Below, one piece after another: positions 9,318-22,418 of a stretch of DNA of 64,000 nucleotides (within the stretch, counting starts at the first letter, position 1; each line of letters starts with the position of its first letter). This DNA comes from a virus. The notes beneath the pieces were generated by a model, which saw nothing but the letters and a program-made list of their open reading frames with translations, made no database searches and had not been told where the DNA came from. Location of the stretch: IMG/VR virus record IMGVR_UViG_3300047300_000501, positions 1 through 64,000 of that record. One strand, written 5' to 3'. Made by a program: the position numbers and the translations under genes.

Positions 9318-10802
9318 ATGCTGAATTTAGGGTTCTGGTCATCATCAAAAGGAACGGTAGCAGTACCAGACCTATCTGGACTCTTGTATTCAGACGCAAT
9401 TACAACATTACAAAATTCAGGACTAAATTATACTAACTCTGGATCAACAAATACATCTAATTCAAATTTAAATAATAGAATTGCAACACAATCAATTGCA
9501 GCAGGAACTTTAGTTAATTATGAGACTAATGTTAGTTTTACATATTACATTTATGCTGCAGTTCCAGTTACTCCAGGTGTTACTCCAGTCACCCCCGTAA
9601 CACCTGTAACTCCTGTTACCCCAGTTACTCCTGTTACCCCAGTTACTCCTGTAACTCCAGTTACTCCAGTAACACCTATTAATACAGATCCAATCTGGGC
9701 TAACTGTTATAGTGAATACAGAGCAGCATGTTGTGGAACTGTAACAATCTGTGTTGATACAAATCCTAATTCTCCATCATATGGTTTAGAAAATCCTAGT
9801 GCAAGTTATGCTGGATCAACTTGTTCCAATGGTCATACATATGAAGATCCTTGCCCTGTAACTCCTGTTACTCCAGTCACACCCGTAACACCAGTTACTC
9901 CTGTAACACCAGTAACACCAGATACACGTCTTCAATGTGTTTCACCAAATACTATTACTAATGCAAATGCCTATACATGTACCGAATTAGGATTGACATA
10001 CCTTGGAGGACCAACTGAGTATGTAATTGGCGTTGGACAACAGTGCTGTGGTCCTGCGGTTACACCTGCTGTAACTCCAGTTACTCCAGTAACGCCTGTA
10101 ACTCCTGTTACCCCAGTTACTCCTGTAACGCCTGTAACTCCAGTTACTCCAGTAACGCCTGTAACTCCAGTTACACCAGTTACTCCAGTCACACCATCAG
10201 TTACACCGTATTCTTTCTCAACTACAACTTATGGAGTTAAGTGTATTTCTGGAAATACATTTATTAGACTTGCTCCAGGCAAAGGTATCGAACAAACAGA
10301 TATTCTTACAGGTAAAAAATATCTTATGAATGATAATAATGAAATTATTGCAAAACAGGCAAAAGATATTCAGATTGGTGATGAAGTCATGACTGTTCAA
10401 TATGCTGAAGTTGATCAGTCTTCCCCAGACTATGCAGTATTTGAGTGGAACTCTGACTCTCTTACATTTGTTTCAAATTCAACAACAACTATTACTGATA
10501 TTGAAGAATCCGCTAAGTTCCAAACAGTTTACATTAATGGCGACCAGTCAGCACAGTTTACTTTAGAACATCCAATTCTTACAAATAAAATCATTAATGG
10601 TGTTCCTTCTTGGAAGTTTGCAATGGTAGCAGAACTTGAAGTAGGAGATATAATTGTTAAATATAACAATGAAACTGGACTATATAACAATGTAGAAATA
10701 ACATCATTAGACATAATGTCAAACTTAGACCCAGTTTATACCTTCAGTGCTGAGCCAGGTGATATAATTGTTGCAGGCGATATTATAACTCACAATAAGT
10801 AA
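9318..10802 (+). CDS. PASTA-(VTP)n adhesin with C-terminal intein-like Hint domain
   Basis: A 494-residue mosaic. Residues about 14-80 form a PASTA-like domain ([20 protein letters not shown] ... QSIAAGTLV), which in cell-wall proteins binds peptidoglycan. Three Val-Thr-Pro repeat tracts (about 82-118, 179-204, 247-297) alternate with two Cys-rich modules. After STTTYGVK comes a 186-residue Hint domain from C309. It shows a Cys1 block ([10 protein letters not shown]), a TxxH block (FTLEH) and a C-terminal IITHN, then one final Lys. Hint domains cleave or splice polypeptides by thioester chemistry. The lone Lys after Asn rules out ordinary splicing. No good ribosome site precedes the ATG. Its sister gene is 21060. 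Confidence 0.75.
9561..10208 (+). repeat. Tandem Val-Thr-Pro coding repeats in three tracts
   Basis: Nine-base units of GTA/GTT-ACT/ACA-CCA/CCT recur at about 9561-9672, 9853-9930 and 10058-10208, separated by cysteine-rich coding DNA. Codon choice varies between units. The tracts are protein-level low complexity, not CRISPR repeats, and are likely to vary in length between related phages. Confidence 0.85.
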
Positions 10803-10814
10803 GGGGTAATACTT

Positions 10815-11024
10815 ATGTCAGAAAAGAAAAGGTCTGTAAAACCTTGGGACTTGCTTAACCCAAGCAAAGACCACGCAACTGATGAAGAAGCACAAAAAAG
10901 ATATGATATCTGTGATTGGTGTCCAGAATTTATTTCTTTAACTAAACAATGTAAAAAATGCGGATGTTTTATGAATTTAAAAGTTAAGTTGCAAGAAGCC
11001 TCATGTCCTTTAGGAAAATGGTAA
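10815..11024 (+). CDS. Small Cys-rich protein of the CKKCGCFM...CPL.KW type
   Basis: The 69-residue protein has CDWCPEF, CKKCGCFMNLK and a final CPLGKW, the same layout as the 3295 protein. The six cysteines suggest one or two zinc sites. AAGGGG lies 8 bases before the ATG. It sits between the Hint adhesin and the modification genes and overlaps the next tiny gene (TAATG). Function unknown. Confidence 0.75.
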   Translation: MSEKKRSVKPWDLLNPSKDHATDEEAQKRYDICDWCPEFISLTKQCKKCGCFMNLKVKLQEASCPLGKW

Positions 11025-21036: not shown

Positions 21037-21059
21037 TTTAAAAACTAAAGGGGAATAAT

Positions 21060-22418
21060 ATGTCAAAACAAGCAGGTAGAATGAGCCAGGGAGCAAATGA
21101 CTTCTTGGCACCGTACGCTCCAACAATTGGAACAGCAACCAACGTTCCAGCAGGAAGAGCATACAACAATGGACGGGTAGATGTAACATTTACTCCTGAC
21201 CCAATCAATGCAGCAACATCATTTACTGTGACATCTTCTCCTGGAGGTTATACTGCAACTGGTGCTTCTTCTCCAATTTCAGTTACAGGTTTACAATCAT
21301 CAGTGGCTTATACATTTACTGTTACAGCAACTAATGACGCAGGAACCTCAGCACCGTCTGCAGCATCAAATAGCGTTACAGCGACAACAGTCCCTGCAAC
21401 ACCAACTGCACCAAGTGCTTCTTCTCCGTCAGCAGGTGTAGACTCAGTTTCATGGTCTGCACCAGCAGATGGTGGATCAGCGATTACAAATTACCACTGG
21501 GAATCAAATGACTCAAAGTCAGGAGATACAGCATCTACATCAGTAAGCGTTGGACAGGAGCAGGGTACAGCACAGGCTTATCGTGTTTATGCAACAAATG
21601 CTAATGGTAACTCAGAATACTCTTCATACTCTGGAACAGTAACTACAACATTTTCATTTGTTCCATTTGGCGTGTTTGGTTTCTCACCATTTGGTTTCTC
21701 ACCATTTGGTTTTTCACCATTCTCATTCTCTCCATTTGGGTTCTCTCCGTTTGGGTTTTCTCCGTTCTCATTCTCACCATTTGGTTTCTCACCGTTCTCA
21801 TTCTCACCATTTGGATTTTCTCCTTATGGATTCTCTACAACAACATACGGTGTAAAGTGTATTGATGCTAATACATTTATTAGAGTAAAGACTGGACTTG
21901 GTGTCGAGTCTACTGATCCAGAAACTGGCAAGGTAACTCTTAAAGATGCATCAGGACAAGTAGTTGCTAAGCAAGCAAAAGATATTCAGGTTGGAGATAC
22001 AGTTCTTTCAGCAGACTATGCCGAAATTGACCCATCATCTCCAGATTACGAAGTCTTTAACTGGTCTTCTAACTCACTATCTTTTATTAATCACTCAGAA
22101 ACCACAATTACTGACATTGAAGAAACAAATAAGATTCAAACTATTTACTTCAATGGTGATCAATCAGCACAGTTTACATTAGAGCACCCAGTTCTAATTA
22201 AGAGAAATACTGCTGGAGCAATTAGTTATGGTTTTGCTATGGTTGCAGAAGTTCAGGTTGGAGATGCTATTCTAAAGTATAGCCCAACATCAAACTCATA
22301 TATTGAGACAGATATTACATCTATCGACATATCTTCTGGACAAAAGGTAGTCTATACTTTTAGCGCAGAACCAGCAGATCTTATTATTGCTGGTGACATC
22401 GTTACTCACAATAAGTAG
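21060..22418 (+). CDS. Fn3-(FGFSP)n adhesin with C-terminal intein-like Hint domain
   Basis: 452 residues. Two fibronectin-III-like domains (about 12-117 and 118-199) are followed by about ten FGFSP/FSFSP pentapeptides (about 200-262). Next comes the junction STTTYGVK and a Hint domain from C267 to N451: CIDANTFIRV, FTLEH (TxxH block) and DIVTHN, then a single final Lys. The Hint part is 186 residues including that Lys, exactly as in 9318, although the preceding domains differ completely. Family knowledge says Cys1 and the terminal His-Asn drive backbone cleavage. AAAGGGG gives the ribosome site. Confidence 0.75.
   Translation: MSKQAGRMSQGANDFLAPYAPTIGTATNVPAGRAYNNGRVDVTFTPDPINAATSFTVTSSPGGYTATGASSPISVTGLQSSVAYTFTVTATNDAGTSAPSAASNSVTATTVPATPTAPSASSPSAGVDSVSWSAPADGGSAITNYHWESNDSKSGDTASTSVSVGQEQGTAQAYRVYATNANGNSEYSSYSGTVTTTFSFVPFGVFGFSPFGFSPFGFSPFSFSPFGFSPFGFSPFSFSPFGFSPFSFSPFGFSPYGFSTTTYGVKCIDANTFIRVKTGLGVESTDPETGKVTLKDASGQVVAKQAKDIQVGDTVLSADYAEIDPSSPDYEVFNWSSNSLSFINHSETTITDIEETNKIQTIYFNGDQSAQFTLEHPVLIKRNTAGAISYGFAMVAEVQVGDAILKYSPTSNSYIETDITSIDISSGQKVVYTFSAEPADLIIAGDIVTHNK
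21659..21835 (+). repeat. Tandem FGFSP/FSFSP coding repeat
   Basis: Fifteen-base units encoding Phe-(Gly/Ser)-Phe-Ser-Pro repeat about ten times just before the Hint domain. Low complexity at both DNA and protein level. Confidence 0.85.

What the first reader, a model, noticed from the sequence alone, without database searches (positions are those of the whole stretch)
9318..22418. Two unrelated low-complexity adhesins end in the same non-splicing Hint (intein-like) domain
The proteins at 9318-10802 and 21060-22418 share no upstream domains (PASTA plus VTP repeats versus fn3 plus FGFSP repeats). Both switch at STTTYGVK-C to a 186-residue domain with Cys1, a TxxH block (FTLEH) and a C-terminal THN, followed by a single Lys and the stop. 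Intein/Hedgehog family chemistry is established. A lone residue after Asn means there is no C-extein to splice. The remaining options are self-cleavage releasing the adhesin, or thioester transfer of the adhesin onto another nucleophile, as in Hedgehog or bacterial intein-like domains. A self-processing or covalently self-attaching phage adhesin would be new as far as I know.
Basis: partly seen in the sequence, partly recalled or inferred. Interest (0 to 1): 0.9.

Follow-up and report, generated by a model that had tools for sequence, protein, structure and literature searches.

The report
Intein-like caps on phage adhesins
A group of uncultured bacterial viruses carries a matched pair of adhesin-like fibre proteins, each ending in a predicted self-processing intein-like domain followed by exactly one lysine, which suggests that these viruses trim or chemically link their own adhesins without any enzyme, although no chemistry has been shown.

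Summary
The proteins at 9318-10802 (PASTA, VTP repeats) and 21060-22418 (fn3, FGFSP repeats) are unlike upstream but share a C-terminal Hint domain (60% identical) with Cys1, TxxH, HN and one final Lys. The predicted fold matches intein-like (BIL), Hedgehog and intein domains (Z about 16), with Cys1 and Asn at the catalytic ends; the nearest solved sequence is an A-type BIL domain (E 1.9e-10).

They are a conserved pair: 18 of 51 virus records examined hold two full Hint copies, fn3-type plus PASTA-type where read, in two lineages about 31% identical; many other records are short or cut, and one lacks the second Hint. All 37 Hint genes with a readable start directly follow a fibre-like gene with a shared C-terminal module.

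The lone Lys is invariant in both lineages: 68 of 68 Hint hits of motif scans allowing any residue there, against 0 of 20 non-Hint hits; the -1 residue varies.

Best reading: an active A-type BIL-like cap making a thioester at the adhesin's C-terminus, resolved by Lys+1, another amine or water. No reaction is shown. Annotated precedents exist: new variant of a known kind.

The parts
9318..10802 (+). PASTA-type Hint-capped protein, 494 aa
9357..9542 (+). PASTA domain (residues 14-75)
   Evidence: Pfam PF03793 E 7.8e-9
9579..10196 (+). VTP repeats interrupted by two Cys-rich segments (residues 88-293)
10242..10799 (+). Hint domain Cys309 to Lys494: Cys1 10242-10244, block B Thr 10560-10562 and His 10569-10571, His 10791-10793, Asn 10794-10796, lone Lys 10797-10799
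21060..22418 (+). fn3-type Hint-capped protein, 452 aa
21174..21371 (+). best fn3 stretch (residues 39-104); two fn3 stretches in all
   Evidence: Pfam PF00041 E 1.4e-8
21675..21824 (+). FGFSP repeats (residues 206-255)
21858..22415 (+). Hint domain Cys267 to Lys452: Cys1 21858-21860, block B Thr 22176-22178 and His 22185-22187, His 22407-22409, Asn 22410-22412, lone Lys 22413-22415
8688..9311 (+). Fibre-like gene directly upstream of the PASTA-type gene; ends in the shared W..GDL module
19207..21036 (+). Fibre-like gene directly upstream of the fn3-type gene; ends in the shared W..GDL module

Best explanation
Both proteins are fibre-associated adhesin-like proteins capped by an A-type bacterial-intein-like (BIL) Hint domain that processes itself. 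Inferred order: (1) the Hint folds and Cys1, helped by Thr/His of block B, takes over the preceding peptide bond, leaving the adhesin as a thioester; (2) Asn cyclises, helped by the penultimate His, and lets go of the single Lys; (3) the thioester is resolved by an amine (the amine of Lys+1, as proposed for A-type BILs with their C-flank, or an amine of a neighbouring protein) or by water. The result is an adhesin freed of its ~20 kDa cap, with a new C-terminus that is free, Lys-tagged or amide-linked to a partner. Shown here: predicted fold, catalytic residues, their conservation with the lone Lys, the pairing and the synteny. Inferred: every chemical step, its timing, and the adhesin/fibre role.
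For: Fold and alignment of both catalytic ends; second lineage. Profile of three Hint groups against PDB sequences: best is A-type BIL 2lwy, E 1.9e-10, next an intein at 5.5e-7. On a tree of 41 distinct Hint domains (13.7 changes per column in all, 4.0 of them between the two lineages) 17 of 161 well-filled columns never change; they include Cys1, Thr107, His110, Thr183, His184, Asn185, Lys186. The 41 rows had been chosen by a Cys1 motif and an HNK end, but no full-length member of the two lineages was lost to that choice: of 74 distinct Hint proteins found by profile, 58 end HN-Lys and the 16 others all come from named phages of the Alexandra-like group (15) or a Ruminococcus phage (1). A thioester-only (Hedgehog-like) use would not need HN, and a cleavage at Asn alone would not need Cys1; both are kept. 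Lys+1: 68 of 68 Hint hits in scans allowing any residue (+48, 82+84; many are copies of one another), 0 of 20 non-Hint hits; the -1 position is R 20, K 14, A 6, N 1, at least 9 changes. Review passages: A-type BILs have HN, lack the +1 nucleophile, mostly cleave, and can ligate by aminolysis of the thioester (PMC4031507). BIL2, the top structural match (tied within 1 Z unit of the next rows), is reported to form a Lys isopeptide (PMC8616854, passages).
Against: No reaction was measured. Block F lacks its usual His in nearly all rows of the window's lineage that I aligned. Conserved residues could be kept for folding. If the aim were just removal, HN-K should be dispensable, which simple release does not explain. 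The Lys+1 codon is nearly fixed too: AAG 19 of 20 in this lineage and 11 of 11, only 3 of them distinct, in the other; the mean major-codon share of 50 invariant columns is 0.74, although five other columns also reach 0.95. So part of its conservation may be a DNA- or RNA-level constraint next to the downstream gene's start. One relative (G037/L167) has a PASTA partner with a Cys-rich tail in place of the Hint. Isolated phages of the Alexandra-like group keep HN but have 10-12 residues after it, so a one-residue flank is not needed by all phage Hint caps. That the window's proteins are in the virion is inferred from domains and neighbours only.
Confidence: 0.5

Rival explanations
1. Acyl-transfer ligase: the Hint passes the adhesin thioester to a lysine of a specific partner (fibre protein, the paired adhesin, or a host surface molecule), so the adhesin becomes covalently attached. 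A special case of the best explanation, kept apart because its outcome differs.
For: BIL2 of Tetrahymena BUBL1 is reported to conjugate a ubiquitin-like protein to Lys without ATP (PMC8616854, passages) and is the top structural match of both lineages, though tied. Lys, never Arg, at +1 points to the amine. Each Hint gene whose start I could read (37 of 37) follows a fibre-like gene whose C-terminal module has two near-invariant Lys residues. Two partners per genome carry lineage-matched Hints. Thioester adhesins that bind hosts covalently exist in bacteria (PMC4450167, search listing with start of abstract).
Against: No acceptor identified; the Lys residues in the fibre module may be structural, and PHROG families place the C-terminal part of one such gene (8688-9311) in other phages. 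No Hedgehog-like recognition region follows the Hint.
Confidence: 0.22
2. Self-removing folding cap: the Hint is a C-terminal intramolecular chaperone or solubility cap for low-complexity repeats and is shed by hydrolysis after folding, like the autoproteolytic caps of tailspikes.
For: C-terminal position and low-complexity repeats directly before it; fibre intramolecular chaperones are removed by autoproteolysis (PMC10579305, outline and passages).
Against: The predicted fold is Hint, not a chaperone cap, and hydrolytic release would not need an invariant HN-Lys end.
Confidence: 0.15
3. Catalytically silent Hint kept as a structural or binding domain, derived from an intein-like element.
For: No activity data; a shared fold shows no function.
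Against: The catalytic residues and the lone Lys are unchanged on the tree while the mean well-filled column changes 5.7 times.
Confidence: 0.12

Closest known systems
A-type bacterial intein-like (BIL) domains (e.g. Clostridium thermocellum BIL, PDB 2lwy)
   Same: Hint fold, Cys1, TxxH, C-terminal HN, no +1 nucleophile; nearest solved sequence by the three-group profile
   Different: C-flank is one residue and always Lys; sits at the very end of paired phage fibre-associated proteins
BIL2 of the Tetrahymena BUBL1 locus (6tmm, 6y75)
   Same: top structural match in both lineages (Z 16.6 and 17.8, ties within 1); reported Lys isopeptide chemistry (PMC8616854, passages)
   Different: lies between two ubiquitin-like domains in a ciliate; weak by sequence (E 0.14)
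C-terminal Hint domains of isolated phages (Erwinia Alexandra, Erwinia Y3, Yersinia fHe-Yen9-02, Alcaligenes Afa-NA1, Salmonella Sen-NF)
   Same: C-terminal Hint with Cys1, block B His and HN on structural or tail proteins next to tail-fibre genes
   Different: collagen-like N-termini; 10-12 residues after HN (TDIVAKAEK[KTNL], VDLVSKAEKN, MDDSGYETKRKY); 26-29% identity to the second lineage for the three aligned
Hedgehog C-terminal autoprocessing domain
   Same: fold (Z 16.4) and Cys1 thioester logic
   Different: Hedgehog has a sterol-recognition region after Hint (PMC7765530, passages); here one Lys
Autoproteolytic intramolecular chaperones of phage tailspikes and fibres
   Same: C-terminal, on phage adhesins, removed by self-cleavage (PMC10579305, passages)
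   Different: different fold and chemistry

Membership tests
Hint superfamily | Hint fold with N- and C-termini at the active site | tested here: met
   AlphaFold2 pLDDT 86.7 and 85.8; 78 and 84 of 998 aligned chains at Z>=8, the 50 listed entries all Hint proteins by title; model Cys aligns with residue 1, Asn with the terminal Asn
Hint superfamily | Cys/Ser 1 and block B TxxH | tested here: met
   57 of 58 distinct HN-Lys proteins carry the Cys1 motif, the other begins after it; Thr107 and His110 invariant in 41 distinct domains
Intein (class 1) | +1 Cys/Ser/Thr and a C-extein to splice | tested here: not met
   one Lys, then stop
Intein (class 1) | curated intein-splicing model | tested here: not met
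   PF14890 E 0.029 and 0.15 for the window, 3.2e-7 and 3.2e-6 for two proteins of the second lineage, all below the gathering score
Intein (class 1) | in-frame insertion, absent from intein-less alleles of the same protein | tested here: inconclusive
   one PASTA homologue (G037) lacks the Hint but has another tail instead
A-type BIL | C-terminal His-Asn and no +1 nucleophile | tested here: met
   HN-Lys in all 58 distinct proteins of the two lineages that reach a stop; definition from PMC4031507 passages
A-type BIL | sequence closest to a known A-type BIL | tested here: met
   profile A4 against PDB: 2lwy E 1.9e-10, next intein 5.5e-7; only solved structures compared; the window lineage's own profile A2 did not find 2lwy
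A-type BIL | protein sequence on both sides of the domain | tested here: not met
   C-flank is one residue; from the review passages read I cannot say that a longer one is required
A-type BIL | N- and C-terminal autocleavage or splicing | not testable with these tools
   needs protein expression
Hedgehog Hog domain | adduct (sterol) recognition region after Hint | tested here: not met
   stop one codon after Asn
Pretoxin HINT | toxin domain released after the Hint | tested here: not met
   no residues after Lys; no PT-HINT hit for the window proteins at E<=1

The most novel reading that the evidence does not exclude
These phages carry an ATP-free, self-contained protein ligase: the Hint turns the adhesin's C-terminus into a thioester and hands it to a lysine amine (its own lone Lys as a relay, or a Lys of the neighbouring fibre tip, paired adhesin or host surface), so that the two adhesins are mounted, or the virion fastened, covalently.
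Probability: 0.22. Interest if true: 0.88.

Novelty: new variant of a known kind. Interest (0 to 1): 0.65.

Why it matters
[quoted passage not shown] Here is a natural set in which a BIL-like domain sits at one fixed place in two partner proteins, with its C-flank cut to one invariant residue, so the question 'what is the C-flank for?' becomes a single-residue experiment. If active, it would be an enzyme-free way for viruses to mature or covalently attach adhesins, and a compact tool for C-terminal protein labelling. It is also a marker for finding such phages: G[DN]hhTHNK-stop.

Tried and rejected
Intein with a lost C-extein: rejected as the main reading because the lone Lys is invariant and the HN is kept in two deep lineages. 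Hedgehog-like sterol transfer: no recognition region. Pretoxin cap: nothing after the Hint. Ribosome-binding site as the sole reason for the lone Lys: several relatives have a separate Shine-Dalgarno-like sequence after the stop (my reading), one uses AAA, and Lys never becomes Arg although Lys and Arg interchange at -1; the near-fixed AAG remains unexplained.

Profile A2 against PDB found only one weak true Hint (2lcj, E 0.0038) with two chance hits. Paper searches whose listings showed no account of Hint-capped paired phage adhesins with a lone Lys: (full text of an open-licence library only; listings are capped, e.g. 25 of 505 papers, 20 of 414, and I judged mostly from titles and starts of abstracts). 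One search was a search on fibre chaperones.

Rows dropped before counts: one search took only proteins ending HNK (58 of 74 distinct; the other 16 are from named phages), left out 2 of those 58 (L105, L035: cut at or just before Cys1), and collapsed 56 to 41 distinct Hint domains. For synteny it examined 41 gene starts, one locus per distinct protein, only where at least 330 bases lay upstream and the N-terminal type was recognised; 15 of the 56 proteins were not examined, and 4 of the 41 (L054, L063, L152, L059) were set aside as frames cut upstream with a false internal start. Three rows labelled 'both' by my N-terminal regular expression (L003, L014, L044) were relabelled PASTA by eye before the tree. 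Two further Hint-bearing records (those of L045 and L059) were not given to the two-copy counts: 51 of 53 records known to me were.
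Full report
WHAT IS THERE. The window is 64,000 bases of a 74,202-base virus record. The two ORFs are as described. The first has a PASTA domain and VTP repeats broken by two Cys-rich segments; the second has fn3 stretches and FGFSP repeats. Upstream of STTTYGVK they do not resemble each other (no blastp hit at E<=10). From there to the end they are 60% identical, and both stop one Lys after Asn.

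FOLD. An AlphaFold2 model of the second copy from nine relatives (pLDDT 86.7, pTM 0.84) matches Hint structures: BIL2 of Tetrahymena (Z 16.6, rmsd 2.0, 138 aligned), Hedgehog (16.4, 2.3, 139), Mtu RecA intein (16.2, 2.2, 135), Clostridium BIL (15.7, 2.1, 132); rows within 1 Z are ties. Model Cys7 falls on residue 1 and Asn191 on the terminal Asn of the inteins. The second lineage gives the same picture (pLDDT 85.8; Z 17.8 to BIL2, 17.2 to Clostridium BIL with 28% identity over 134 residues). Against PDB sequences, a profile of three Hint groups is nearest to the Clostridium A-type BIL (E 1.9e-10; next an intein at 5.5e-7; BIL2 at 0.14); the window lineage's own profile is too far away to find it.

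RELATIVES. Two protein scans of viral contigs, which asked for no particular C-terminus, gave 18 loci, and all 18 proteins end THNK-stop. A motif scan for GDhhTHN-any-stop gave 34 stretches, of which 31 are Hint by profile and 3 are not; the residue after Asn is Lys in 31 of 31 Hint hits and 0 of 3 others. A second scan (GNhhTHN-any-stop) gave 48 stretches with 50 matches: 37 Hint, all Lys; 13 not Hint, none Lys. A third (GDhhVHN-any-stop) gave 4 stretches, none Hint, none Lys. Together: 68 of 68 Hint hits with Lys, 0 of 20 chance hits with Lys; many hits are copies of one another. Over all loci held, 155 of 1808 reading frames of 120 aa or more match the Hint profiles; collapsed, 74 distinct proteins reach a stop, 58 ending HN-Lys. 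The 16 others are all from named phages: 15 of the Alexandra-like group with 10-12 residues after HN, and one Ruminococcus phage whose Hint is internal. So within the two lineages no member with another end was found. From the 58 I kept 41 distinct Hint domains (selection under Tried and rejected): the residue before Cys1 is R 20, K 14, A 6, N 1. On their tree (13.7 changes per column, 4.0 of them on the branch between the lineages) 17 of 161 well-filled columns never change; these include Cys1, Thr107, His110, Thr183, His184, Asn185 and Lys186. The average such column changes 5.7 times by parsimony and the -1 column 9 times.

TWO LINEAGES, ONE PAIR. The tree splits into two deep lineages (28-35% identity to L037 for the ten window-lineage rows aligned). 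Each contains both fn3-type and PASTA-type proteins, and well-supported branches force at least three changes of type, so Hint domains have probably been exchanged or homogenised between the two partners within lineages. Two full Hint copies were found in the window's record, in 5 of 14 records of the same lineage, and in 5 of 11 and 7 of 25 records of the other: 18 of 51 in all (two more Hint-bearing records were not examined). The remaining records are mostly short or end before the partner's expected place (my reading of the coordinates); two of them (G032, G050) hold a second copy cut by the contig edge. Where I read the sequences, the pair is one fn3-type and one PASTA-type; for several others only the classification or the frame sizes (about 445 and 325) support it. 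Gene order differs: PASTA first in the window, fn3 first in L088. A clear exception is G037, whose PASTA homologue carries a Cys-rich tail instead of the Hint.

NEIGHBOURS. Of 41 Hint gene starts examined, 4 were cut frames; in the other 37 the gene that ends between 34 bases upstream and 1 base inside the start ends in W..GDL. This is a shared C-terminal module of fibre-like proteins (38 distinct forms); for 8688-9311 it coincides with the C-terminal ends of PHROG minor-tail, virion and unnamed families. Of 113 such fibre frames in the loci, 104 are followed by an HNK-stop within 2.4 kb, 7 have too little flank and 2 are not followed by one; the loci had been chosen for Hint genes, so this figure is biased. 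The module holds two near-invariant Lys residues, a possible but untested acceptor. The arrangement resembles fibre gene followed by tip-adhesin gene (recalled: T-even gp37-gp38). In L088 seven ORFs between the two Hint genes are 2OG-Fe(II) oxygenases above Pfam's cut-off, next to a collagen-like gene. The window has 2OG-oxygenases at 12039-12632 and 28842-29372, a glycosyltransferase 61 domain at 12620-14251 and a collagen-like ORF at 6151-6888. Hydroxylation and glycosylation of the Pro-rich repeats is a natural guess, nothing more.

OTHER PHAGES. tblastn with the second lineage finds 57 phage records, 40 of them listed. The proteins of Alexandra, Y3, fHe-Yen9-02, Afa-NA1 and Sen-NF that I read have a collagen-like N-terminus, a C-terminal Hint and 10-12 residues after HN with Thr, Val or Met at +1; thirteen Alexandra-like viral contigs show the same kind of tail. 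RefSeq or GenBank call them 'virion structural protein', 'putative tail protein' or 'hypothetical protein', and Y3's record already says 'contains intein domain'. BFVD holds fn3-, PASTA- and Hint-named proteins of uncultured phages as top fold matches. So Hint domains at the end of phage structural proteins are on record as annotations; the pairing and the invariant one-Lys flank are what I did not find in print (searches; open-licence library, capped listings).

MECHANISM. Reviews (PMC4031507 and PMC7664689, passages) say that BILs lack the +1 nucleophile, mainly cleave, and that A-type BILs with HN can join their flanks by aminolysis after Asn cyclisation. For BIL2 the authors report an isopeptide with a Lys (PMC8616854, passages). 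Here both halves of that chemistry are conserved but the C-flank is one Lys. Simple removal of the cap does not need HN-Lys; Hedgehog-like transfer does not need Asn. The absence of Arg at +1, although Arg and Lys interchange at -1, points to the Lys amine rather than its charge. I therefore favour thioester formation resolved by an amine, with Lys+1 as first candidate, and hydrolytic release as a side or main product. Against a purely protein-level reading, the codon of that Lys is nearly fixed as AAG (19 of 20 in this lineage; Lys overall AAG 119, AAA 95; mean major-codon share of 50 invariant columns 0.74, five other columns also at 0.95; 11 of 11 in the other lineage, 3 distinct), which I cannot explain.

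VERDICT. The chemistry is unproven. New variant of a known kind (A-type BIL-like Hint).

Noticed in passing
L088 4448-10977: Seven ORFs above Pfam's cut-off for 2OG-Fe(II) oxygenases lie between the fn3-Hint and PASTA-Hint genes, beside a collagen-like gene; possible hydroxylases of the Pro-rich repeats.
   Followed up: partly
window 8688-9311 and 19207-21036; many loci: Fibre-like genes directly upstream of each readable Hint gene start share one C-terminal module ending W..GDL with two near-invariant Lys residues.
   Followed up: partly
L167 about 12500-12930: PASTA homologue in G037 has a Cys-rich tail where the Hint would be; Cys-rich segments also interrupt the VTP repeats of the window's PASTA protein.
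   Followed up: partly
window 10797-10799 and 22413-22415: The lone Lys codon is AAG in 19 of 20 and the preceding His codon CAC in 20 of 20 in this lineage, above the mean codon fixation (0.74) of 50 invariant columns, though five other columns reach 0.95.
   Followed up: partly
L021 2972-4414, L071 5020-6462, L072 5032-6462: Collagen-like structural proteins of Erwinia, Yersinia and Alcaligenes phages end in a Hint domain with a 10-12 residue tail; Thr at +1 in the Erwinia ones could in principle splice.
   Followed up: partly
L074 5485-6783: A Ruminococcus phage protein has an internal Hint domain followed by about 115 residues, a different arrangement from the C-terminal caps.
   Followed up: no
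L002 2852-3640: In this relative the reading frame upstream of the repeats no longer reads as fn3, as if shifted (broken gene or sequencing error), while the Hint frame is intact.
   Followed up: no
window 33563-35170: Portal protein is nearest (48% identity) to Streptomyces phages in the phage collection, a weak hint at an actinobacterial host.
   Followed up: no
window 14298-14888 (minus strand): Lysozyme-like SLT_3 protein encoded against the direction of the surrounding structural genes.
   Followed up: no
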